A DNA stretch of 64,000 nucleotides from a virus: IMG/VR virus record IMGVR_UViG_3300024518_001342, positions 1-64,000 of that record; one strand, written 5' to 3'. Both the position numbers and the translations under genes were made by a program. Below, one piece after another: positions 17,875-39,663 of the stretch (positions are counted from its first letter, which is position 1; every line of letters begins with the position of its first letter). The notes under the pieces are model-generated. The model was not told the origin of the DNA, did no database searches, and worked only from the letters and a program-made list of their open reading frames with translations.

Positions 17875-19449
17875 TTATGGCTTTTGCTCCACAATTCCCA
17901 CATCAGTAGTCAATAATGTTGATGCCGCCGATGCTGCGTTTTGGAGAGCGCATCGAGTAACCTTGAATGGATCAATAATACCATAAGTAAACATATTTAC
18001 TATTTCCCCTGTAGAAATATCCAAGCCAGATTCAGGGTTCGTATGATTTTCTACCTTCTCTAAATAAATATCGGGAGACAACCCGGCATTGGAAACCATT
18101 TTCCTGAATGGTTCTTTAATTGCTTGCTTTATAATGTCCACTCCAATTTGTTGTTCGTGTGTTTCAACTTCCACCTCGATCTTATTTGCTACTCGCAACA
18201 AAGGCGCGGAGCCACCAGCCATGATGCCTTCTTGCTGTGCTGAATGGACTGCTTCCAGAGCATCTTCAACTCTGTGTTTCTTTTCCATCATTTCTATTTC
18301 AGTGATACCACCTACCTTAATAACAGCAATAGCTGACGCAAGGCGCGTTATTCTTTCTTGTATCTTTTCACATATATTAAGACTAGATTCTTTTTCAATC
18401 TCCTCCTTTAATAACTCAATTCTTTTCTCAACTTCTTCGTCGTCTTGGTTGCCCCCAACAATAATGGTCGCTCTCTTGTCCGACTCAATACTTTGGGCAG
18501 TGCCAAAGTGTGGTAGTTTGATGTCCTTGAGATGAAGTCCGCTTTCTCGTGATATAAAAGTTGCTCCCGTTGAAATGGCTAAATCAGCTAATATATTTCT
18601 CCTCTCCTCGCCATAGCGCGGTGCTTTGATTCCAGCTACTCGCATAGATCCTTTCATGGAATTCATAATCATAGCAGCAAGAGCCTGACCTGAAATGTCT
18701 TCTGCAATAATAATAAACGCTCGACCATCTCGTGCCGCGATCTCTAGTGACGGCAGGATATCATCAATGGTTGTAATATTTTTATCTGTTACCAAAATTA
18801 AACAATCTTCGTGCTTCATTAGTCCGCGACGTTCATCAGTTATGAATGCGTTAGCCAACAACCCCGAATCAAATTGGAAACCTTCGGTCAACTCTAAAGA
18901 AGTTTCATTGGACTTTGCTTCTTTGATTGTTATTGCTCCACCTTTACCGACTTGATCAACTGCATTAGCAATCAGTTTTCCAATTCCCTTATCACCATTC
19001 GCAGAAATCGTGGCTACTTGTTCAATTTCTTCTTTTGTAGAAACCGGACGAGAGTGCTCTCTTAGTTCAGTCACAATCGCATCCACAGCCAAATCAATTC
19101 CGCGTTTCAATTCTATAGGAGAAGCACCCGTAACCAAATGCGTCTGTGCTTTCTGAAGAATCGCCCTAGCCAAAACTGTTGCCGTGGTGGTTCCATCCCC
19201 TGCGGTGGAGTTAGTTACTTCACTGGCTTGCTTAATAACTTGAGCCCCTAGATCCTCAAAGGGATCTTGGAATTCAACAAACCGCGCAACCGTCACACCA
19301 TCCTTTGTAATAAGGGGTCGTTGATTGTGGTTCTTTAATATTACATTCCTGCCACGAGGACCAAGAGTTGCGCCAACCGCGTCGGCTAACTTATCCACAC
19401 CATTCATTATGGCTTCGTTTAGTTTTCTTCCTGATTTATAGTGTTTCAT
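17875..19449 (-). CDS. groEL: Phage-encoded GroEL chaperonin
   Basis: At 524 residues this is a near full-length chaperonin. It has LGPRGRN (about 29-35), the ATP-binding AGDGTTTAT (about 83-91), and intact apical and C-terminal equatorial domains. The Gly-Gly-Met tail of bacterial GroEL is missing; the protein ends GIVEQKP. The ATG follows an AAGGAGA site. No GroES gene is next to it, but a GroES/gp31-like gene lies at 39298-39663. T4 needs gp31 with host GroEL to fold its major capsid protein, so a dedicated pair for capsid folding is likely (inference). Confidence 0.95.
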   Translation of the reverse strand: MKHYKSGRKLNEAIMNGVDKLADAVGATLGPRGRNVILKNHNQRPLITKDGVTVARFVEFQDPFEDLGAQVIKQASEVTNSTAGDGTTTATVLARAILQKAQTHLVTGASPIELKRGIDLAVDAIVTELREHSRPVSTKEEIEQVATISANGDKGIGKLIANAVDQVGKGGAITIKEAKSNETSLELTEGFQFDSGLLANAFITDERRGLMKHEDCLILVTDKNITTIDDILPSLEIAARDGRAFIIIAEDISGQALAAMIMNSMKGSMRVAGIKAPRYGEERRNILADLAISTGATFISRESGLHLKDIKLPHFGTAQSIESDKRATIIVGGNQDDEEVEKRIELLKEEIEKESSLNICEKIQERITRLASAIAVIKVGGITEIEMMEKKHRVEDALEAVHSAQQEGIMAGGSAPLLRVANKIEVEVETHEQQIGVDIIKQAIKEPFRKMVSNAGLSPDIYLEKVENHTNPESGLDISTGEIVNMFTYGIIDPFKVTRCALQNAASAASTLLTTDVGIVEQKP

Positions 19450-19475: not shown

Positions 19476-20762
19476 TTATATCTCTAAAAAATTCCCCTGT
19501 GTAATATTTTTTTCTACTAGCTGTTGGTAACTGGCTCCGGTCACTGACAACAAACGTTTGCGAGATTCATGAATGTTATCGTCCATAATATCCACACCAA
19601 ATGTTGTTTGAAGTGCTTCCTCGGGCGTTGAGCCTTTGCTCATTTTGTGCTTCACAATTTCCACCAAAAAATTACCATTTCCGCAACAAGGCTCTAAGAA
19701 CTTCTTTTTCTTTCCCCAATCACTTTCTGGTAGCTTTCCGAGCATTTGTCTAATTTTAGCGGGCGGGGTAAAAACTTCTCCCAAATTCTCCACTCGCTCT
19801 TTTGTCTTGGTTTTAGATTTCTTCTGTTTAGTTTTAGATTTCTTCTGTTTAGTTGTGATGGGCGGTGAAAAATAATTATTAATGTAGTCTACGTGGTGCT
19901 TGCTCAATCCATATTGCCCACACAACTCCTCAAGCGAATAGGATGCGTCACGCAGTATGTTGGGGAGAGACTTGAACACCTTCTCATTTCCAAACCCTGA
20001 CCACCGGCCGGTGGCAAAAATATATTTAAATAAATTAGAAGATAAGTTGTGCAAAAGGTGCCTTCCTTCTTCCTCGTTCTCCACAGTTACATAATAACAC
20101 ATATCGGTCCCACCATGAATACCCAGATCCAGAAAAGGGTGAGTATACCCACTTCGAGTCCACATTACCTTGGGCTGCGCGGCGAATGATTGCCGCCTTG
20201 AGGAATACCACACTTGCCTATTGGTGTGAAAAACTGGATTAATGTGGTCCGGTAACATAAACCGCTTGCTCAAAGAATTTCCCTTCTTCAATATAATGTT
20301 GTGACAAGTAACGTAGTCATACTTGACATCCAACTTTTCACTCGGCTCAAATATTACTTTTTTATGAATCTCATAAGCCTCTTGACATAAGTCATTTGGC
20401 AAGTAAAAAGTATCATCGTCAAAAGATATTCCAAAGGAACTTGAATTTTTTGTAACCGTAGAAGAAAAAGACCGATCTGGTGTATTTTCAATTAGATAAT
20501 CACTAAACGTTGAGCCAATATCGGGAAAAGAAGTGCCGGTGTCAAGATCCACATAATGAACCTTATATTTCTTAAAGTATTTTAGAATCTTGCTACTGGG
20601 ACTGCACCAGCTTTGGGGAGTTATCCACAGTAATTTTCCCCCCTCGTTTAAGGAGCCCATCGCTTTCTTAGTAAAGTCTATCCACACCTTATGTGGGGTG
20701 GTATTTCGTTTTTGCCGATCCTGAAAAGGAGGGTTACTAGCAATAACATCGAAAGTCTTCAT
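19476..20762 (-). CDS. Circularly permuted N6-adenine DNA methyltransferase
   Basis: The 428-residue protein has the catalytic motif IV NPPF at residues 10-13, directly after the start. The cofactor-binding part is at the other end: FTPPAKIRQML (motif X-like) and FLEPCCGNGNF (motif I, from about 355), then GVDIMDDNIHESRKRL. In Eco57I-like enzymes the order is reversed. The C-terminus (QGNFLEI) stops exactly where the N-terminus (KTFDVIASNPPF) would normally continue. A lysine-rich linker made by a 21-base tandem duplication (19811-19852) joins the halves. The neighbouring gene may be a nuclease. Confidence 0.85.
   Translation of the reverse strand: MKTFDVIASNPPFQDRQKRNTTPHKVWIDFTKKAMGSLNEGGKLLWITPQSWCSPSSKILKYFKKYKVHYVDLDTGTSFPDIGSTFSDYLIENTPDRSFSSTVTKNSSSFGISFDDDTFYLPNDLCQEAYEIHKKVIFEPSEKLDVKYDYVTCHNIILKKGNSLSKRFMLPDHINPVFHTNRQVWYSSRRQSFAAQPKVMWTRSGYTHPFLDLGIHGGTDMCYYVTVENEEEGRHLLHNLSSNLFKYIFATGRWSGFGNEKVFKSLPNILRDASYSLEELCGQYGLSKHHVDYINNYFSPPITTKQKKSKTKQKKSKTKTKERVENLGEVFTPPAKIRQMLGKLPESDWGKKKKFLEPCCGNGNFLVEIVKHKMSKGSTPEEALQTTFGVDIMDDNIHESRKRLLSVTGASYQQLVEKNITQGNFLEI
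19811..19852. repeat. 21-base tandem duplication within the methyltransferase gene
   Basis: Two identical, in-frame 21-base units encode the repeated KQKKSKT part of the linker between the two halves of the permuted methyltransferase. The linker length could vary between related phages. Confidence 0.85.
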
Positions 20763-21904: not shown

Positions 21905-22840
21905 TTACTCTCCTCTCTCTCTAGGATAGGCTAACTCTAGCACCCCTGGATTGTGTTTGTCAAATAGTTTTTTCAATTTCTTTGTTTCTTTCTTAGTCCG
22001 CCCAAGAATATATATATATTTATGTTTTGTTGGCGACTTCCGTTTGCTGCACCGTTCCTGGTGTGCCTTACGTTCTTGTTTTAATTGTTTAGAAATGTCT
22101 TCTGGGATTGTTTTCCAATTTACTTTGCGATAGTTTTTCTTTTTGCCCACCATTTTATACCACTCGGGTTGCCATTCAATTCCTAATTTTTTTGCATAGC
22201 GCACAATCTGACTTCGGTCAGCAAAGCCACTGCTACCAAACCATCCACGCTTGGGATTGTCCGGGTCAAGGTATTGACTTCCAGCACCAAATTTCTGCCC
22301 TAAATAGATAAAATTACACGCTTGATAGATTGTTCCTAGTTCCTTTGCCTCGGGATCTGAATAGGCTGAAAATGCCCTAAATTCAGTGTTTTTTACCATA
22401 TACTTAATGGACTTGGTTATGAGCCAAGAAGCCAGATTTTTGGGAGCCCACGAGATACAGGCTCCTCGGCTTATTAATTTTTCTTTATTTTTATTTTCTT
22501 CGCCCAAAATGTTAGAAAATGAATTGGGGGTTGCCATGATGATAACCCCGGCTAATGCGTCATTCTTTTTTAGTCGTGCTGTGAAGCGATGCGTTAGCCA
22601 GATTGGAAGTTTGCCAAGCCATTCGTGTCGTTCGATAAATTGTTTAATTTCGTCGCACTGTTCTTTGTTGGTCTTATCAACATAAGAAAACTCGAAGTCT
22701 TCAATTCTTAAATTATTATATTCTTCCTGGGTAAGTTCGGCTTCTTGGAGATCTTTTATTAAGTTTTGTTGCCGGATCTCGTATTGCCAACAATGATTCT
22801 TTTTGTAATCTTTAAATCTATCGTAAACTTCTTGCTTCAT
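21905..22840 (-). CDS. Mom-like/GNAT-family protein, likely DNA modification
   Basis: The 311-residue protein has an acyltransferase-like core with SRGACISWAPKNLASWL, then FRAFSAYSDPEAKELG and TIYQACNFIYLGQ. This order matches the phage Mom-like GNAT proteins; Mu Mom modifies adenine in DNA to resist restriction. The C-terminal 80 residues are strongly basic, suited to DNA binding. Its position beside an adenine methyltransferase supports a role in genome modification. The ATG overlaps the gene at 22837 by ATGA. Confidence 0.6.
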   Translation of the reverse strand: MKQEVYDRFKDYKKNHCWQYEIRQQNLIKDLQEAELTQEEYNNLRIEDFEFSYVDKTNKEQCDEIKQFIERHEWLGKLPIWLTHRFTARLKKNDALAGVIIMATPNSFSNILGEENKNKEKLISRGACISWAPKNLASWLITKSIKYMVKNTEFRAFSAYSDPEAKELGTIYQACNFIYLGQKFGAGSQYLDPDNPKRGWFGSSGFADRSQIVRYAKKLGIEWQPEWYKMVGKKKNYRKVNWKTIPEDISKQLKQERKAHQERCSKRKSPTKHKYIYILGRTKKETKKLKKLFDKHNPGVLELAYPRERGE

Positions 22841-27482: not shown

Positions 27483-27970
27483 TATCTTTCCATTGTTTTG
27501 ATGGTAGGACCGCTGACCCAACGGAATTTTCCCATATCGAACACAACCAACGCAGAAGGGAATGGGGCTGAATTTTGTTTATCGTTTCCGTTTGTGAACT
27601 TCAGCCGACCCTTAATAAAGTAAATAGCGTTTGCTTCCATCACATAATCGTGCCAATACTTAGTGTCGGTACGGGAAGGGATCAGCATAACCACAGTCGC
27701 ATTGTTCTGAGTTGATTCCTCATAAGATTTCTTTACCCACTTACTTATGTCTCCATAAGGAGGGTTGACAAAGACAACCTCGTTTTCCCAACTCTGCGAA
27801 AGGCCATCGTCTTCCCTGGTATAATACTTCTCACACTTAGCAGTGGTAGGAGTGCTACACGGGTCAAGGGTAAACTTAAATTTTTTGTTTAACTTAGCAA
27901 AGAATTCAGGCGGGGTTCCCCACTCATTAGTCTTTGAGCTAAACATCGTCTTTTGTGTTTGTATATCCAT
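27482..27970 (-). CDS. Dam-like DNA N6-adenine methyltransferase (phage type)
   Basis: The 162-residue protein matches the small phage DNA adenine methyltransferase family: a start with EWGTPPEFFAKL, LDPCS, the catalytic VFVNPPYG (NPPY at 69-72), and a later region with KGRLKF and SALVVF. It transfers a methyl group from S-adenosylmethionine to adenine in DNA. It is the second adenine methyltransferase of the window, after the permuted one at 19476-20762. Protection against host restriction is the likely role. Confidence 0.88.
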   Translation of the reverse strand: MDIQTQKTMFSSKTNEWGTPPEFFAKLNKKFKFTLDPCSTPTTAKCEKYYTREDDGLSQSWENEVVFVNPPYGDISKWVKKSYEESTQNNATVVMLIPSRTDTKYWHDYVMEANAIYFIKGRLKFTNGNDKQNSAPFPSALVVFDMGKFRWVSGPTIKTMER

Positions 27971-32200: not shown

Positions 32201-32672
32201 GATAAAAGTTTCCTGGCTTATAAGATTGAGACACCAACTTGAATATATTATTTAATCCAGTTTGGTTTTGGGCTAGAAGAACCAAGTGAGAGCGACGATT
32301 GATTCCGTCTTTAACTTTCTTTGAAGACACTTCGTTTTCTACAGCAAACCCAGTATTGGCTTTTTCTTTTTTTCTTTTCTTATCCGCTTTTGCTTCTTCG
32401 TTGAGAACTTCCCATTCTTTAATCGAGGGGATGAAATATGCCTCACACCCATAAATCGGTTTAAAGTTCTTGCCTTCTTTTTCCATTGACTTGGCATGAA
32501 GAACCTGATAGGCTAGTCCATTACAATTGCCATGATCCGTAAGGGCAAGCGCATCCATCCCGTTTTCATAGGCAAAGTCCATATGTTGCTGCGGGTAGCC
32601 GATGGCATCGAAAGGCGAACCAGCAGTGGAATGGGCGTGAAGACCGACAAAAGGTATGGAGGACTTATTCAT
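29277..32672 (-). CDS. dnaE: DNA polymerase III alpha subunit (family C)
   Basis: This is a complete bacterial-type replicative polymerase, 1131 residues from the ATG at 32672; an upstream TTG would lie in the promoter. The PHP domain opens it (GLHAHSTAGS, then LTDHGN). The palm has PSRGSAGGS and YPDIDYDVSD with catalytic Asp residues. FRPGPLGAK and the HhH region (IKGLGEKAMDQIL) follow, then an OB fold. Most T4-like phages use a family B polymerase, so this is a marked difference. A second, family A polymerase is at 47925-49127. Confidence 0.93.
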   Translation of the reverse strand: MNKSSIPFVGLHAHSTAGSPFDAIGYPQQHMDFAYENGMDALALTDHGNCNGLAYQVLHAKSMEKEGKNFKPIYGCEAYFIPSIKEWEVLNEEAKADKKRKKEKANTGFAVENEVSSKKVKDGINRRSHLVLLAQNQTGLNNIFKLVSQSYKPGNFYRFPRIDLEMLREHGEGVIASSACLGGVYATDYWKNKDDGDEKILEAMRTTTENMLGILGDRWYGELQWWSDQDQHNLNHFVIQVAKEYGVELISTCDSHFYNPEVWKDRELYKRLHPGLAAFHGDMPESLEQVPHELYPKNGDQMWESYKKYSSELGEKYDDDLIMESIERTYDIAHNRIEKFYPDNTVRLPSFVIPDGLDEDTALSVAASNGLQSQTKHSQEYLDRLKHELEVIKDRGFSRYFLTMKAIADKATATQLTGPSRGSAGGSLVAYALGITQVDPIKYGLLFSRFLRADATDYPDIDYDVSDPFVLKEMLVKEWGEDNVVPISNWNTLQLRSLIKDISKLYKVPFQEVNKVTSKMVGESIGPAKRDHGIKTGVYAPTFDEVMKYSTTLQQFLRDYPEVETHVRTLVGQVRSCSRHAGGLVVGENLNKYMPLIYSGGVRQTPWTEGQNVRHLEPMGFIKFDILGLSTLRMIEDAIGKVLERHKGITDPSFVEIKNFYDEHLHPDKLDFDNQDIYKNIFHKGKWAGVFQFTEPGAQGFCKKAKPTSLVDIAAITSIFRPGPLGAKVDRDYVEAKESPQYIKYPHPIIQEVTEETYGFLIFQEQIALLAHRLGKDISLDEGNLLRKLLTKKGTGKGAEEKTRIHTKFVAGCSEKGISKKQAEDLWNTFEYFSGYGFNKSHAVGYSILSYQCAWLLNYYPAEWCVAFLNKEPEGRKERAINVVKNLGYDIQEVEINTSGRSWDISTDGQLVQPLTSIKGLGEKAMDQILQNRPFKHVEDFLFNENVSYSKLNKKALDVLVRSGACDSIADDRFKHCKHLWLSTVSDRPKNKKRLEDNITKYCGEIDFTEEERIENVVSLTGIFPFELVMDKKVRERIEHNCVPPIAQFDKDLGLCWLIPRSVTVRQTKNGRDFWIINVIDDTCQSTDIKCWNVRSEDKVHLNRPYITKLDYDDQWGFSTRSVKHNFILVG

Positions 32673-32679
32673 ATTTACA

Positions 32680-32708
32680 ATGATATAGGAATAATAAAAG
32701 GTTGTCAA
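32680..32708 (-). promoter_or_regulatory. Promoter of dnaE, probably leaderless
   Basis: TTGACA (32703-32708), a 17-base spacer and TATCAT (32680-32685, five of six), 7 bases before the ATG at 32672. No ribosome binding site is present. It diverges from the ACTATTTA box at 32731. Confidence 0.75.
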
Positions 32709-32730
32709 GGTATTTTTTCCACCACCTCCA

Positions 32731-32738
32731 ACTATTTA
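32731..32738 (+). promoter_or_regulatory. ACTATTTA box before the plus-strand fibre gene
   Basis: This is the only box on the plus strand that I found, and it precedes the only plus-strand gene, 38 bases before its ATG. This orientation match is the best support that the box is directional. Confidence 0.65.
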
Positions 32739-32775
32739 GGGGTGAATATTTATTTAAAGTATGGGAGTATATTAG

Positions 32776-33912
32776 ATGGCAGGATTTAATGAAGGAAGAA
32801 GTGTACCAGGAGGTTTCGGTGTATCAGGATCGTCGGGCTCCGTACAATTCAAACAAGGTGCAACTTTTGGTGGTGATAATGAATTCCATTACAACCCCGA
32901 CACAGATACCTTAACCATTACGGGCACTGTATCTGCCAGTGCGTTTCTCGGTGATGGCTCTGGCTTGACTGGGGTGGGTGGCGGCTCACCTGGAACTCCT
33001 CTAAACTCTATTCAGTTTAATGATGCCTCAAGTTTTGGTGGAGATGCGGATCTTACTTGGACTACAAATAAACTTGCTCTAACTGGTGCGATGAATTTAT
33101 CTGGATCTACCGCAGTTGGCACAAGTCCCTTTACAGTCGTAGGAGCAAGTGGAGTCGATAATGGTGGTCCTGTAATATTTACAAAAAACACCAGTTCTTT
33201 TGGTGATGATTGGGAATCGCCAATCTCTGGTACATTCATCATTTCTGATGATATAGGTGCATCTGGTGTTGGTTATAATGGGGCAGCAGTAATGTATGTT
33301 CACTCGCGAGATAGTTTAGCCGCTATTGGATTTAAAAATGAAGACACATTGGTAGGTGGGGAGCAATCAAACAGGGTTACAAGCACAGCCGTTAAAGGTG
33401 TATGGCTTGGTCTTCAAGGAAACATTCTACAACTTCAAAATAACATTGGAGACACAATTATACGAGCAGGAGATGTTGGTGTCGGTGGAGAAAACGAAAT
33501 CATAGTTAGTCGTTATGGCACCACGATTGGCAATCATGTGGACGATGTTCACCAAGTTTCAGGAACATTGGATGTTTCGGGATCTGTTAAAGCAAATATG
33601 ATGTCCACCACTGTATTGACAGAAACCATCAATACAGATACAGAAGCCGATTGTAGTTCTTATAATGTTTTTAAATATACCATAGATGCCACCCTTGATA
33701 TAACCGGAAGCAATCCAGTTGCAGGTGCCTCTTATTTATTTATTTTGACTCAGGGTGCGGGCGCACCTTATACAGTAAATTGGGATGGTTTTAAATGGCC
33801 TAACGGGGGGACGCTTCCCGTTCTTTCTACTGGCGCTGGCGAGATTGATGTTGTTTCAGGAATTTCAGATGGAACATTTATTTATGCCGACATTACTAAA
33901 AACTTTATCTAG
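32776..33912 (+). CDS. Tail-fibre-like structural protein
   Basis: The 378-residue protein is rich in Gly, Ser, Thr and Asn, with short repeating modules such as GSVQFKQGATFGGDNEF and NSIQFNDASSFGGDADL, and FLGDGSGLTGVGGG. Such sequences form beta-rich fibres or fibre tips in phages. The ATG follows GGGAG. The C-terminus (GAPYTVNWDGFKWPNGG) looks like a small globular tip of the sort found on receptor-binding fibres. It is the only gene on this strand and has its own late-type box. Confidence 0.7.
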   Translation: MAGFNEGRSVPGGFGVSGSSGSVQFKQGATFGGDNEFHYNPDTDTLTITGTVSASAFLGDGSGLTGVGGGSPGTPLNSIQFNDASSFGGDADLTWTTNKLALTGAMNLSGSTAVGTSPFTVVGASGVDNGGPVIFTKNTSSFGDDWESPISGTFIISDDIGASGVGYNGAAVMYVHSRDSLAAIGFKNEDTLVGGEQSNRVTSTAVKGVWLGLQGNILQLQNNIGDTIIRAGDVGVGGENEIIVSRYGTTIGNHVDDVHQVSGTLDVSGSVKANMMSTTVLTETINTDTEADCSSYNVFKYTIDATLDITGSNPVAGASYLFILTQGAGAPYTVNWDGFKWPNGGTLPVLSTGAGEIDVVSGISDGTFIYADITKNFI

Positions 33913-33929
33913 GAGTAATAAGTCTCTGG

Positions 33930-34490
33930 CTAAATCAAATAGCCAACGATGCCAGCCAAGACAATTGTAAAAGAAATCAACACAGGAACCCAAGGATTCT
34001 TTTTTTCTAATTCGTTTGTGAGCAATTGAATATTTGTTTTATGCTGAATTAAGATTGTTTCTATTTTCTTAAACTGTTTGTTGATCGCCGCATAGTCAAC
34101 TTCAACTTGAGCTTCTTTAAGTTCCTCGAATTTTAAATCGAGAAGATTCGTTGCTTCTGTTAAGGCTCGGTGAGCCCCTAATGATAAAAGGGCTTGGTTA
34201 TCCTGAAGGCACTCAATCTTCTCTTTTAGATTTTCTAAAGGTCGGGCAGACAGTTCGAGTGATTCCTCAACACACGTCACGATATCAGTGGTTGTCTCTC
34301 GTGAAGTGACACCAACTCGCTCTTTTAGTTCTTTGAGATCTTCGCTAAATTGATTGTTGTGTTCTTTTAGTTCATCAAAACTTTTCTTTAGTGTGTCGAA
34401 AATTTCCTGACTATCATTATCTTTAGGTTTTTCTACTGAAGGTTTGCGCGTCTGTTTTTTAAAGTCTCGTTCAAATCCACCTAACGGCAT
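33930..34490 (-). CDS. Coiled-coil protein with a C-terminal membrane anchor
   Basis: The 186-residue protein has a basic start, about 120 residues of charged helix with heptad pattern, and a C-terminal hydrophobic span (VPVLISFTIVLAGIVGYLI). It may sit in the inner membrane with a coiled coil in the cytoplasm. Its start shares a base with the stop of the gene at 34490 (TAATG). It has no family I recognise; a role similar to the small anchored protein at 17563-17856 is possible. Confidence 0.55.
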   Translation of the reverse strand: MPLGGFERDFKKQTRKPSVEKPKDNDSQEIFDTLKKSFDELKEHNNQFSEDLKELKERVGVTSRETTTDIVTCVEESLELSARPLENLKEKIECLQDNQALLSLGAHRALTEATNLLDLKFEELKEAQVEVDYAAINKQFKKIETILIQHKTNIQLLTNELEKKNPWVPVLISFTIVLAGIVGYLI

Positions 34491-34897
34491 TATCCAACCC
34501 CAATAGAGCCGGACCAGTTTCCAACAAGTTCACCAGATCCGATACTTGTTTCACCAGCAATTACTGAAGCCGTGGCGTTCAAAACGCTTGCAACGTCGTC
34601 CACTCTCAAAAAAACAGCATTCACTCTCCAATCCGCAGAAAAAGATTCATCTTGCTCAAGAATAAAATAATTAGAAGCAGCAATTCCCAGTTCAGAAAAC
34701 CCAACGCGCATCTTTACATTGGTTGCCGTAGGATCAATTGTATTTTTAACCGTTATAAATTTAGTAACAGATGGGAAAGAGATTTGAACTACAGCCCCAC
34801 CAGCCGGTACATTGATTGAAGAAGATAAATACGGCCGACTGCTTGCTTGATAAGCCCCCACACTTCCTAATCCGTCACGATATTTATAATTTGCCAT
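34490..34897 (-). CDS. Virion structural protein, probably capsid-associated
   Basis: The 135-residue protein starts MANYKYRDGLGSVGAYQASS and is beta-rich, ending SGSIGVG. Proteins with this start and this end are found in virions of T4-like aquatic phages, as I recall, and are thought to be head or neck decorations. An ACTATTTA box lies 21 bases upstream and the ribosome binding site is GAGGAG. The late-type promoter fits a structural role. Confidence 0.6.
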   Translation of the reverse strand: MANYKYRDGLGSVGAYQASSRPYLSSSINVPAGGAVVQISFPSVTKFITVKNTIDPTATNVKMRVGFSELGIAASNYFILEQDESFSADWRVNAVFLRVDDVASVLNATASVIAGETSIGSGELVGNWSGSIGVG

Positions 34898-34918
34898 ATT
34901 TGTTACTCCTCACCCCTA

Positions 34919-34926
34919 TAAATAGT
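34919..34926 (-). promoter_or_regulatory. ACTATTTA box before the 34490-34897 gene
   Basis: The box lies right after the stop codon of the 34927 gene and 21 bases before the ATG at 34897, with a ribosome binding site between. Confidence 0.6.
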
Positions 34927-35862
34927 TTATTCTTCACCATCTAGTCCAATTTTCTTCCACGTTCGGTACTTCAGCATATCTGATTTAGGTCGTTTCATTT
35001 TTTTTCTTTCCTCCGAGGCTAAATATTTACAATAACCTTCCCATGTGCTTATGTCATAATACCATTCCATCTCAATCCAAGTGGTTGGTTTTTGAGTATC
35101 AATGGCTTCAAAAATATCTTTGAGATCAAAATATCTTCCTGAGTGTCTTTCTGCAAACGGTAGTTTGTTGATGGGATATTTTCCATCTCTCAGTGGAGAG
35201 TTAGGATCAAATTCTCCTGTAGCTTTTTTCCAGAACAATTGTGAAAATCTTGTCACTTCACTTGCATCAAATGCAAAACCAATATATTCGTTATCGATCA
35301 CTGAATTACCTTCTGGTGTGGTTAGCAAAAAGTTTCCTGGTCTGGATATTGTTTCTCTCCATTTGCGTATGTGTTGTGATGGAAACACTCCATAAGAAAA
35401 CGCTACATAATATTTATCTGGTGTTACCCATTTAGATAATTGATAGCAAGTTTTGTGAGCCACTTTTGCGCCGTAGATAATGCTCCACACCAATGATTCT
35501 TTTTTCCTCTGATCTTTGGGGTGTATCTCAACATAATAAATAGGAATTGCTTTTTTACTTTCACTTGGGAAGGTGTCAAACTTTCTTCCAATCCAAGCAG
35601 GATCTTCAACCATCTCTCCTAGTCTGTGTTTTATTAGTGGTTGCATTTTAGAATCGCATACAATCCAAATAGTTTCGCACCCTGCGGTGGCGCATTCCAA
35701 CACGGCTCGCTCGACTGCTAAAAAGTTTTGTGCTATGGGTTGAAGGCAATCGTGCCAAGGTAAATTATAATCCAAACGCTGCCCGGACACAGGAACAATG
35801 CCAGCAAGATGAAACGAATTAATGTTAACGATGTTTTCTTCACTGGAATATTCTTGCGACAT
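34927..35862 (-). CDS. Nucleotidyltransferase-like protein
   Basis: The 311-residue protein opens like a sugar-nucleotidyltransferase: HLAGIVPVSGQRLDYNLPW, then AVERAVLECATAGCETIWIV. That resembles the NTP-binding loop and second strand of a GT-A fold. The typical R-x-x-P-K signature is not visible, so the fold is uncertain. The end is basic and charged. Similar proteins are found in cyanophage-like genomes. It overlaps the gene upstream by 23 bases. Confidence 0.5.
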   Translation of the reverse strand: MSQEYSSEENIVNINSFHLAGIVPVSGQRLDYNLPWHDCLQPIAQNFLAVERAVLECATAGCETIWIVCDSKMQPLIKHRLGEMVEDPAWIGRKFDTFPSESKKAIPIYYVEIHPKDQRKKESLVWSIIYGAKVAHKTCYQLSKWVTPDKYYVAFSYGVFPSQHIRKWRETISRPGNFLLTTPEGNSVIDNEYIGFAFDASEVTRFSQLFWKKATGEFDPNSPLRDGKYPINKLPFAERHSGRYFDLKDIFEAIDTQKPTTWIEMEWYYDISTWEGYCKYLASEERKKMKRPKSDMLKYRTWKKIGLDGEE

Positions 35863-36742
35863 AAGATTCTACTAATGGATTTTTATTTATTATATCATCA
35901 AACGAATCAACATTAAATTTTAATGTATCTGTTGAATCGTAAAGTGTTTTACCGAGGGGCTGGATCTCTCGAATAGAGTTCTCTATCCTTACCGCATAAT
36001 ATTTATAACGACTTTTGTTTAGCATGTCGCGGCCATTCCTTGCCCCGCGAATGCCAGCACCCTTCATCATCTTGAGTGTTTTGAAGCGAGCATTGATATC
36101 AGAATAATCAAAAGAGTTGAGTTGCTTCTCTGTAAGACAAGAAATAGATACAGCATCTTTATACACTTGGTTGCCGTCAACTCTATCGGTGGGATAGAAA
36201 AGTATTTCACTAACGAATTCTGTGTTATCTTGTATATAATCGTATTCATGTTTCATTCCGCTTCGTACATCAAACCAATCATAAACTTTATATTTCTTTT
36301 CTGGAAGTTGTGCGGGGGTTGGCAAACCAGAAACTCCGTCGTCGGTAAAGATAATCAACTCCTCAAAGTTTATCTTTGCCATGCGAGCTTTGTGAGTAAA
36401 GACTTTAAGTTCTTTATCCCCTACCTTAATTGAAGATGCTTTATCCGCTACAGGGTTTAGTCCAGATAGAGTTAAGTAAAAATATAGTTTTTCCCATAAT
36501 ATATCTTTGTAGCTTCCAATAACTTTATGTGAAGTTGGGCTCACCAGAGTGTGGGAATTATTTTCTAAGCCAAAGAAAGATAAATCTTGCTCGGCACTAA
36601 AATGATCAAAGCGGTGGGGAGGATCTATATTTACATAAACAAAAGGAACATTGTTTAAAAAAGAATAAAGAAGGGCATTGAGAGAGGAGCCAATTACAAT
36701 CTTTTCATACTTGAAGCTGATGTCCCGAATGGTAGAGTGCAT
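35840..36742 (-). CDS. Protein with a dinucleotide-fold-like start, function unknown
   Basis: The 300-residue protein starts with KIVIGSSLNALLYSFLNNVP, which resembles a nucleotide-binding loop, although the Gly pattern is not the classical GxGxxG. The rest is mixed alpha/beta. I recall similar proteins beside nucleotidyltransferase-like genes in T4-like aquatic phages. The overlap with that gene (23 bases) suggests they function together, perhaps on a sugar or lipid. Confidence 0.45.
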   Translation of the reverse strand: MHSTIRDISFKYEKIVIGSSLNALLYSFLNNVPFVYVNIDPPHRFDHFSAEQDLSFFGLENNSHTLVSPTSHKVIGSYKDILWEKLYFYLTLSGLNPVADKASSIKVGDKELKVFTHKARMAKINFEELIIFTDDGVSGLPTPAQLPEKKYKVYDWFDVRSGMKHEYDYIQDNTEFVSEILFYPTDRVDGNQVYKDAVSISCLTEKQLNSFDYSDINARFKTLKMMKGAGIRGARNGRDMLNKSRYKYYAVRIENSIREIQPLGKTLYDSTDTLKFNVDSFDDIINKNPLVESYVARIFQ

Positions 36743-36752
36743 GTAGGTTGTA

Positions 36753-37562
36753 TTATTCTGACAACGGCAACTGCACTTGATGAGGGAAATGAGGCGCGTT
36801 AGATTTGGAACCCTTGGCTCTGTTATCCTCCTTCTTCATCAGTTCTCCATTGGCTAAAGTGGTAGGGCCGCCGTCGTCAACTGATATCATATGATCACCT
36901 TCATATTTGCCCATATATAAATCCAACACAGGAATGTTGGCACCAGTGCGATCCCTCGCATCTTGAAGGGTGTAGAGCTTTTTCTTGTCTTCAAAAGTAT
37001 AAGTATCTTGATGAGTGCGACGGCGCTTTACGATACCAGCCTTCTCAAGATCAGGAAGCTCTAGCTTTAGTGCCTCCCCAAACACATACCTAATTTTATT
37101 ATAAAAAACGGCGTTCTGGGCTCTCGACATCCAATTCGTGTAAGCCTTCTCCTGTTCTTCTCCTGTTGCTACGGTGTCTGATACAGTGGTGAAATAGGCA
37201 TCTTGCTCTAAAAACCAAGTATAAAAACCCTGGGCGTCAGATATCGCATAGCCACATTCTTCCTCAAGATAACCGATTACATCACCCAAAGCCAAAAATT
37301 GACTTGGGGTGAGCATTTTCTTTTGCTTTCCTACTGCGGCCGCTATAGCGGTCATCTCACGAAGGATGTTTTTTACTTTCGCTTTTACAGAAGCATCGAG
37401 ATCGGTTTCTTCTTCATACATTTTGTCAAGCCCTTGCCACTTGAGGGTACTCGAAAAGTTACTCTTTATTTTCAAGCACATCCTGGCTACCAGTTCTTCG
37501 TGATGCCGCTGATCAAGTTTGGCGTTACTAGCAAATAGATTTTCAAATAATCGATAACTCAT
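36753..37562 (-). CDS. HNH-containing protein, partner of the DUF262-like gene
   Basis: The 269-residue protein is helical for about 200 residues and ends with an HNH-like segment: EGDHMISVDDGGPTTLANG, then EDNRAKG. The His in GDHM, the Asn in LANG and the Asn in DNRAKG fit the H-N-N/H plan of a beta-beta-alpha-metal nuclease. Its start overlaps the DUF262-like gene by 20 bases. In GmrSD type IV restriction enzymes, DUF262 and HNH (DUF1524) parts cooperate to cut modified DNA. Confidence 0.55.
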   Translation of the reverse strand: MSYRLFENLFASNAKLDQRHHEELVARMCLKIKSNFSSTLKWQGLDKMYEEETDLDASVKAKVKNILREMTAIAAAVGKQKKMLTPSQFLALGDVIGYLEEECGYAISDAQGFYTWFLEQDAYFTTVSDTVATGEEQEKAYTNWMSRAQNAVFYNKIRYVFGEALKLELPDLEKAGIVKRRRTHQDTYTFEDKKKLYTLQDARDRTGANIPVLDLYMGKYEGDHMISVDDGGPTTLANGELMKKEDNRAKGSKSNAPHFPHQVQLPLSE

Positions 37563-38163
37563 TTTCTTCCTTTCCTACGTTAGCTATATCGCGAATAAAT
37601 GCCGACAACAATGTTGGCATCGCTTGACGATGTTCTTGTTTGTTTAGTTTTTCCGACATATTGAGGTGTCGAAAAAGATGACACATATCCCTATATGAAA
37701 TCCGTCGCAAAGTAACCACTGTGATCTTCTCTTTATAGAGAATGTCTTTTTGCTGGTGGCGATCAAAATCATCTAATGTTTTAGTGACTCTGGTGCCGGG
37801 TTCGCATAGTTTCATCTTCTTTCGTAGGAAGTTATAAATCGAACTTGAGGTGTTGTGCCCGTCAATATTGATGAATTTTTTCCCCGCCTTTTGTGCTTTT
37901 AAAAAATATGCTTCCGAGTCTTTATCTCCTATTTCGCGAGCAAACCTTAAACACTCATTGACATCGGCACGAACAATTATATTGCAAGTGCGCCCTGCTA
38001 AAAAACTCCCCATATAGAATTCTGACTGTTCAAGTGACCAGCCAGATCCTTGTTCTATCCCCCCTCGTCTTTGAAACGAAGGATCTAAAAGGGTATCTAA
38101 GTATTCTTCAGCCAAAGAATCAAGCGCATATTTTTCTGGCTTGGGATCATAGGCTTCTAGCAT
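37543..38163 (-). CDS. DUF262-like (ParB/sulfiredoxin-type) protein
   Basis: The 206-residue protein has the DUF262 plan: DPSFQRRGGIEQGSGW, then an SEFYMGSFLAGR helix, a strand NIIVRAD, and FINIDGHNTSSSIYNFLRK, which corresponds to the D-G-Q-Q-R-L-T-T-I motif of GmrS-type proteins. The usual Arg of that motif is changed (DGHNTSSSI). Together with the HNH gene it looks like a split GmrSD-like system. A ParB-like regulatory role is the main alternative. Confidence 0.55.
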   Translation of the reverse strand: MLEAYDPKPEKYALDSLAEEYLDTLLDPSFQRRGGIEQGSGWSLEQSEFYMGSFLAGRTCNIIVRADVNECLRFAREIGDKDSEAYFLKAQKAGKKFINIDGHNTSSSIYNFLRKKMKLCEPGTRVTKTLDDFDRHQQKDILYKEKITVVTLRRISYRDMCHLFRHLNMSEKLNKQEHRQAMPTLLSAFIRDIANVGKEENELSII

Positions 38164-38219
38164 TGTTGTAATTTCTTAATCATGTCTCTAGAGTATCATC
38201 TTTAATATCGCATTTCAAG

Positions 38220-38540
38220 CTAAATCGACAGAGAACCCAATTTTTTTTGGATCTGTTCAGCCATCTTTAAATTAAGAAGTGTGACCTCTTTCATTTCCAC
38301 CATAATGAATTCACGGTTTTCATCATAAGCACCTTCAGTCATTATACGAATACCTTCTGAGCGAGCACACATTTTTACAAAATCATCGTGAATAAAAGAA
38401 ATCATTTCTTGCTTTATTGGATCATCTCCGCACAACGCGGTGGCTTCAGCCAACTTTGCGCTTGCATCTAAATAATCTGTAGTTATCTGTATGAAACTAT
38501 TCTCAAACATTTCCATCATTTCTTGTTCTTTATCTTCCAC
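38220..38540 (-). CDS. Small helical acidic protein, function unknown
   Basis: The 106-residue protein is entirely helical in appearance, rich in Glu and Met. The start at 38540 lies right after the stop of the gene at 38542. No family recognised. Confidence 0.5.
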   Translation of the reverse strand: MEDKEQEMMEMFENSFIQITTDYLDASAKLAEATALCGDDPIKQEMISFIHDDFVKMCARSEGIRIMTEGAYDENREFIMVEMKEVTLLNLKMAEQIQKKLGSLSI

Positions 38541-39297: not shown

Positions 39298-39663
39298 TTA
39301 TTCATCAATCACGCCGACAACATAATTTTGATGAATGATGTTAAACGTGTTATCCTCAATTTTTATTTCTTCGATCATGGACTTATCTACAACCAGCGAA
39401 GCATTTCCGCTATTCTTTGCAGAGGTGGTAAATACGTCGTCCATCGTTCCTCTTTGTGTTGCCCAAGTGGGCTGATCGGGATTAAGATCTCTTAAGAACA
39501 AATCGCAATCTTTCGCCGCGCAGACAAACTTAACTAAACCGTATCTTTCCTGTTCGCCGAGGCTAGCGCCATCAGGAATCAGAACAGGGCTCAAATCTGG
39601 TTTTTTTACCTGCGGTATTTTTTGGACAAGTAAATGTTTGTTAAACGGCTTGAACTTACACAC
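39298..39663 (-). CDS. GroES/gp31-like co-chaperonin
   Basis: The 121-residue protein fits the GroES plan: FKPFNKHLLVQKIPQ (as in GroES PLHDRVVVK), PVLIPDGASLGEQERYGLV, a mobile-loop-like middle with an insertion, VVDKSMIEEIKIEDNTF and a closing NYVVGVID. T4 gp31 is a co-chaperonin of similar size with an enlarged mobile loop, needed to fold the major capsid protein. It probably pairs with the phage GroEL, though the genes are 20 kb apart. The call rests on motif order. Confidence 0.55.
   Translation of the reverse strand: MCKFKPFNKHLLVQKIPQVKKPDLSPVLIPDGASLGEQERYGLVKFVCAAKDCDLFLRDLNPDQPTWATQRGTMDDVFTTSAKNSGNASLVVDKSMIEEIKIEDNTFNIIHQNYVVGVIDE

What the first reader, a model, noticed from the sequence alone, without database searches (positions are those of the whole stretch)
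36753..38163. Overlapping DUF262-like and HNH genes: a split GmrSD-like system in a phage
GmrSD enzymes join a DUF262 part with an HNH part and attack modified phage DNA. Here the two parts are separate, overlapping genes, with an altered DGQxR-like motif (DGHNTSSS). The phage might use it against competing phages while its own modification protects it.
Basis: inference. Interest (0 to 1): 0.6.

Follow-up and report, generated by a model that had tools for sequence, protein, structure and literature searches.

The report
Split phage ParB-fold/HNH nuclease pair
A marine-type phage carries a two-gene version of a DNA-cutting enzyme family that is usually one protein, and in related phages this family often sits between a PvuII-like DNA cutter and a DNA methylase, so it is probably part of the weapons phages use against other DNA.

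Summary
ORF A (206 aa) is a divergent DUF262-like (ParB/Srx-type) domain and ORF B (269 aa) ends in an HNH nuclease domain; B starts inside the end of A. The filing as GmrSD holds only in part. Fourteen related viral contigs (nine lineages) define a phage subfamily. Most members are one protein of about 470 aa. In the window and two other phages it is split at the same domain boundary, with a ribosome site for B. All members replace the arginine of DGQQR, which SspE needs for GTP hydrolysis, by Ser/Thr; the HNH is PF01844/Cas9-like, not DUF1524. So it is not a canonical GmrSD, but may work like one without the usual NTP switch. New here: in relatives the gene often lies between a PvuII-like nuclease and an N4/N6 DNA methyltransferase. 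Other phages of the group have a ParB-like gene in that middle position. The window pair stands alone, in a gene slot that is empty in most relatives and holds a ParB-like gene in a sister phage about 96% identical. Best reading: a swappable DNA-restriction effector carried by phages. The target is untested.

The parts
37543..38163 (-). ORF A: DUF262-like (ParB/Srx-type) domain protein, 206 aa, motif IDGHNTSSS in place of (I/V)DGQQR
   Evidence: PADLOC NsnA profile 5.2e-06
36753..37562 (-). ORF B: helical region plus C-terminal HNH nuclease domain, 269 aa, D223 H224 N238 N247
37543..37562 (-). 20-nt overlap: start of B (ATG 37560-37562) lies inside the end of A (TGA 37543-37545); B is in the +1 frame relative to A
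37568..37571 (-). AGGA, putative ribosome-binding site for B, 5 nt before its ATG; an in-frame TAG at 37575-37577 rules out a longer B
   Evidence: read from the sequence
36743..38219 (.). accessory slot between the conserved 300-aa gene (35840-36742) and the 106-aa gene (38220-38540): about empty in L051, L056, L010, L053, L063, L039; a 361-aa ParB-like gene in L047; small unrelated ORFs in L008 and L064

Best explanation
A and B are the two subunits of a phage-borne DNA endonuclease from a phage subfamily of DUF262-HNH proteins. A forms the ParB/Srx-type sensing domain and B supplies the helical linker and the HNH nuclease that cuts DNA. The subfamily is usually one chain; here it is split at the domain boundary and probably co-translated, so the two chains are expected to associate. 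The subfamily lost the DGQQR arginine, so cutting is probably not gated by the GTP/UTP hydrolysis known from SspE and GmrSD. Its role is most likely restriction of non-self DNA (host chromosome or rival phage), because relatives are placed in a cassette with a PvuII-like nuclease and a DNA methyltransferase that could mark the phage's own DNA. Shown: domains, conserved residues, the split, the cassette in relatives and the slot. Inferred: association of A and B, cutting, target, protection.
For: Domains and conserved catalytic residues. Purifying selection in relatives. Split at the same junction in the window, L136 and L140, each B with a Shine-Dalgarno-like sequence and ATG. PvuII-like gene (G-x-D...E-x-K-S kept; PvuII is the best PDB match at E 0.0055) directly upstream in L128, L138, L140, L141-L145, and an N4/N6 methyltransferase directly downstream in L128, L136, L138, L141-L145. 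In L039, L093, L117 and L118 a ParB-like gene takes the position after the PvuII-like gene.
Against: The window pair has no adjacent nuclease or methyltransferase, and no PvuII-like gene or PF01555 methyltransferase was found in the whole 68-kb record, which may be a fragment. L097, L137, L139 and L146 also lack the full cassette around the gene. No biochemical data. L140 has GH in place of DH at the HNH site, so that copy may be inactive. Foldseek support for A is weak (best E 0.13).
Confidence: 0.58

Rival explanations
1. A free-standing HNH gene that spreads by homing: the HNH cuts phages that lack the gene at this slot and the repair copies the pair in; the DUF262-like part helps to bind the target.
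For: The site is empty in close relatives and filled here; HNH homing genes are common in phages (general knowledge); homologues sit at various places in different phages.
Against: The same slot holds a ParB-like gene without HNH in the sister phage L047 and small unrelated ORFs elsewhere, so it is a general accessory slot; the fused form stays in one cassette with a PvuII-like nuclease and a methyltransferase in several lineages.
Confidence: 0.17
2. An active Type IV, modification-dependent enzyme of GmrSD kind that cuts modified DNA of rival phages.
For: DUF262 + HNH is the layout of GmrSD, BrxU and SspE; the phage has a Mom-like gene, consistent with a setting of modified phage DNA.
Against: DGQQR arginine absent from every member, and its loss abolishes GTP hydrolysis and defence in SspE (PMC13251355); HNH not DUF1524; an adjacent methyltransferase in relatives fits a nuclease that spares modified DNA better than one that attacks it.
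Confidence: 0.15
3. A decaying remnant: the split is a frameshift in a once fused gene and the pair is no longer functional in this phage.
For: Most relatives are fused; split and fused members are not separated on an unresolved tree; the end branch of the window sequence is long.
Against: Both ORFs are otherwise intact, the subfamily motif and HNH residues are kept, B has its own ribosome site, and the same split with ribosome sites exists in two other phages.
Confidence: 0.1

Closest known systems
GmrSD / BrxU (DUF262 + DUF1524 Type IV restriction enzymes)
   Same: DUF262-like domain plus a His-Me nuclease domain; mostly fused; QR near the N-terminus (FQR) and an FxxxN-like LFRxxN are kept.
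   Different: No DGQQR arginine; HNH of PF01844/Cas9 type, not DUF1524 with NxxFxxKK; a GGxxxGSGW stretch after FQR that the DUF262-HNH proteins L127, L130 and L131 lack; found here only in viruses.
SspE (phosphorothioate-sensing DUF262-HNH effector)
   Same: ParB-type N-domain plus C-terminal HNH.
   Different: SspE needs R100/R133 of DGQQR for GTP hydrolysis (PMC13251355); here that position is Ser/Thr. No ssp genes noticed nearby.
DUF262-HNH proteins of cyanophages S-SSM7 (SSSM7_035), Sf-FS3 (SfFS3_32) and contig L127
   Same: Fused DUF262-HNH phage proteins of about 466-505 aa; nearest annotated relatives in cultured phages.
   Different: About 20-27% identity; keep the arginine (DGNNR, DGGNR); lie next to 2OG-Fe(II) oxygenase genes.
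PvuII restriction-modification system
   Same: Relatives' upstream gene keeps the PvuII-type GxD...ExK site and the downstream gene is an N4/N6 methyltransferase.
   Different: The middle gene is a ParB/Srx-type protein, with or without HNH; the window pair has neither partner.

Membership tests
GmrSD (Type IV, DUF262+DUF1524) | DUF262/ParB-Srx-type N-terminal domain | tested here: met
   hhalign 98.4% to DUF262-HNH phage proteins; L127 bridge to PF03235 at 1.4e-4, below the curated cut-off; ParB structures are the top five Foldseek hits but weak. Window A alone has no Pfam hit.
GmrSD (Type IV, DUF262+DUF1524) | (I/V)DGQQR NTP-binding motif | tested here: not met
   IDGHNTSSS in the window; [IV]DGNN[ST][SAT]S in the relatives; definition from PMC4619093.
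GmrSD (Type IV, DUF262+DUF1524) | DUF1524 nuclease with E/D-H, NLxLL, NxxFxxKK | tested here: not met
   B hits PF01844 HNH and Cas9 HNH, no DUF1524 hit.
GmrSD (Type IV, DUF262+DUF1524) | NTP-dependent cleavage of modified cytosine DNA | not testable with these tools
   biochemistry needed
HNH (His-Me finger) nuclease | D/E-H, N, N catalytic residues in a beta-beta-alpha-metal fold | tested here: met
   D223 H224 N238 N247; model superposes on GeoCas9 HNH, 1.5 A over 64 columns.
PvuII-type R-M cassette | PvuII-like nuclease and methyltransferase adjacent | tested here: not met
   Absent around the window pair and not found in the record; met for relatives L128, L138, L141-L145.
Homing endonuclease gene | cuts the empty site of gene-less relatives | not testable with these tools
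   An empty site exists (L051); cutting not testable.

The most novel reading that the evidence does not exclude
A group of uncultured phages carries a so far undescribed three-part restriction cassette: a PvuII-like nuclease, an exchangeable ParB/Srx-type effector (either ParB-like or an arginine-less DUF262-HNH) and a DNA methyltransferase. The effector can also travel alone, as in the window, and there as two separate subunits.
Probability: 0.35. Interest if true: 0.68.

Novelty: new variant of a known kind. Interest (0 to 1): 0.5.

Why it matters
DUF262-HNH enzymes are known mainly as bacterial weapons against phages. A phage subfamily that lost the NTPase arginine and sits with a nuclease and a methyltransferase would show phages fielding their own restriction units. 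It would also give a natural test of whether the NTP switch is needed for this enzyme class.

Tried and rejected
tblastn of A and B in the phage collection, of A in plasmids, and single-protein scans of viral contigs found no full-length relatives; alignments A1, A2 and A6 did. Programmed frameshift: considered because B is in the +1 frame of A in all three split loci; rejected because each B has an ATG and ribosome site, and in L136 and L140 B starts after the stop of A. Single origin of the split: neither shown nor rejected (3 changes on the tree, one-clade test p 0.34). One scan of 84,980 bacterial and archaeal genomes with alignment A10 found no member; the scan uses two short peptide patterns, so absence is not proven. 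Literature searches found no description of the cassette; the library is incomplete. NsnA (PADLOC hit) could not be traced in the papers held.

Full report
Setting. The window is part of a 68,042-base virus record of an uncultured myovirus: tail sheath, DnaE-type polymerase, DnaB, UvsX-like recombinase, GroEL. Close relatives come from other viral contigs, for example L003/L047, 91-97% identical over most of the shared region. That the group is marine is an inference from the cyanophage-like company of some relatives, not a tested fact.

The observation. ORF A (37543-38163, minus, 206 aa) and ORF B (36753-37562, minus, 269 aa) overlap by 20 nt. A has only weak hits to phage families of unknown function and to PADLOC NsnA (5.2e-06). 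B has a sub-threshold PF01844 HNH hit. Direct searches found no relative in phages or viral contigs, apart from HNH-only matches for B.

Relatives. Neighbouring conserved genes gave 123 related loci, and one of them, L097, encodes A and B as one 468-aa protein. Alignments then gave L127, L128 and L136-L147. Leaving out L127, that is 14 contigs in about nine lineages, several being near-copies. In all but L136, L140 and the window the protein is one chain. L127 is more distant and bridges to Pfam GmrSD_N and to cyanophage proteins of S-SSM7 and Sf-FS3. The profile comparison of the A subfamily with these is strong (98.4%, E 7.5e-15).

Motifs. Every subfamily member has FQR-x-GG-x3-GSGW, [IV]DG[NH]N[ST][SAT]S, LFR (QFR in L140) followed by xxN, and LNxQExRQA; L127, L130 and L131 keep an arginine at the fifth motif position and lack the GGxxxGSGW stretch. 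In GmrSD the DGQQR motif is nearly invariant (PMC4619093), and in SspE its arginine is essential for GTP hydrolysis and defence (PMC13251355). The motif change is thus a subfamily trait, not decay of one copy. The HNH keeps D-H, N and N (L140 has GH for DH) and resembles Cas9 HNH.

Structure. AlphaFold models: A pLDDT 76.8, B pLDDT 86.6. The best five PDB matches of A are ParB-family proteins, weak singly (E 0.13-0.79), and BrxU and SspE also appear lower in the list. B's best matches are Cas9 HNH domains.

The split. The window, L136 and L140 are split at the same place, after the last helix of the DUF262-like part. B begins with ATG behind AGGA-like sequences, inside A in the window and after A's stop in L136 and L140. 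The tree leaves one to three origins open.

Context in relatives. A gene with the PvuII-type site (G-x-D ... E-x-K-S) lies directly upstream in L128, L138, L140 and L141-L145; L141 and L143 are cut by the contig end. Its profile's best PDB match is PvuII at E 0.0055, with the same catalytic residues aligned; Pfam gives PvuII at 4e-4 for the L128 copy, below its cut-off. A PF01555 methyltransferase follows directly in L128, L136, L138 and L141-L145, and a Dam-family gene after that in most. L140 has a PF01555 gene about 4 kb upstream. Several of these contigs are near-copies, so this is about five lineages out of ten including the window. L147 has genes with DPPY motifs upstream that read like D12 methyltransferases (sequence reading). 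In L039, L093, L117 and L118 the gene after the PvuII-like gene is ParB-like instead, and in L104 the methyltransferase follows directly; that these are ParB-like rests on their (E/D)GxxR motifs and on weak matches between them, not on a significant Pfam hit. Of 13 loci with the PvuII-like gene beside a readable neighbour, 12 have a ParB/Srx-type gene next to it.

The slot in the window's lineage. Between the 106-aa and 300-aa genes, close relatives have 11 bases (L051), 48-91 bases (several), small unrelated ORFs (L008, L064), or a 361-aa ParB-like gene (L047). The pair is accessory cargo. That the sister phage has a ParB-like gene there may be chance, since the slot takes other genes too; the exchange in the cassette is the stronger evidence.

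Function. Inference: the pair is a nuclease used on non-self DNA. Published ideas for ParB-like phage DNases include degrading host DNA or rival elements (PMC5512222). The window record has no PvuII-like gene and no PF01555 methyltransferase but has a Dam-family gene at 27539-27970, another methyltransferase at 19476-20762 and a Mom-like gene at 21905-22840. Whether any of these protects the phage from the pair is unknown.

Verdict. Observation confirmed, interpretation partly supported. Not a GmrSD by two tested features. A phage, arginine-less DUF262-HNH variant, split in this phage, from a family with a repeated cassette context.

Noticed in passing
L128:783-3852, L138:5487-8733, L144:712-3962, L145:5486-8736: Phage gene cassettes of PvuII-like nuclease, DUF262-HNH, N4/N6 methyltransferase and Dam-family gene.
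   Followed up: partly
L039:13395-15833, L117:2131-4749, L093:13292-15033: Same kind of cassette with a ParB-like protein in place of DUF262-HNH; the ParB-like proteins differ strongly from each other.
   Followed up: partly
window 19476-20762 (-): Methyltransferase whose catalytic part matches at the N-terminus and SAM-binding part at the C-terminus, that is, in permuted order relative to the Pfam families it hits.
   Followed up: no
window 21905-22840 (-): Mom-like DNA modification protein (PF25680, 1.1e-14).
   Followed up: no
window 17875-19449 (-) and 39298-39663 (-): Phage GroEL (phrog_5725, 4.6e-143) and a possible GroES-like protein (Cpn10, weak, 0.029).
   Followed up: no
window 32776-33912 (+): 378-aa ORF on the opposite strand to its neighbours, no family hit and no homologue in the related loci; the region 32658-34929 is missing from close relatives L003/L047.
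   Followed up: partly
L147:3707-5038 (+): 443-aa unknown protein between two genes with DPPY motifs, perhaps a restriction enzyme; no Pfam hit.
   Followed up: no
G002 (record of L097), bases 3-167: A PvuII-like fragment at the contig end, far from the DUF262-HNH gene of the same record.
   Followed up: no
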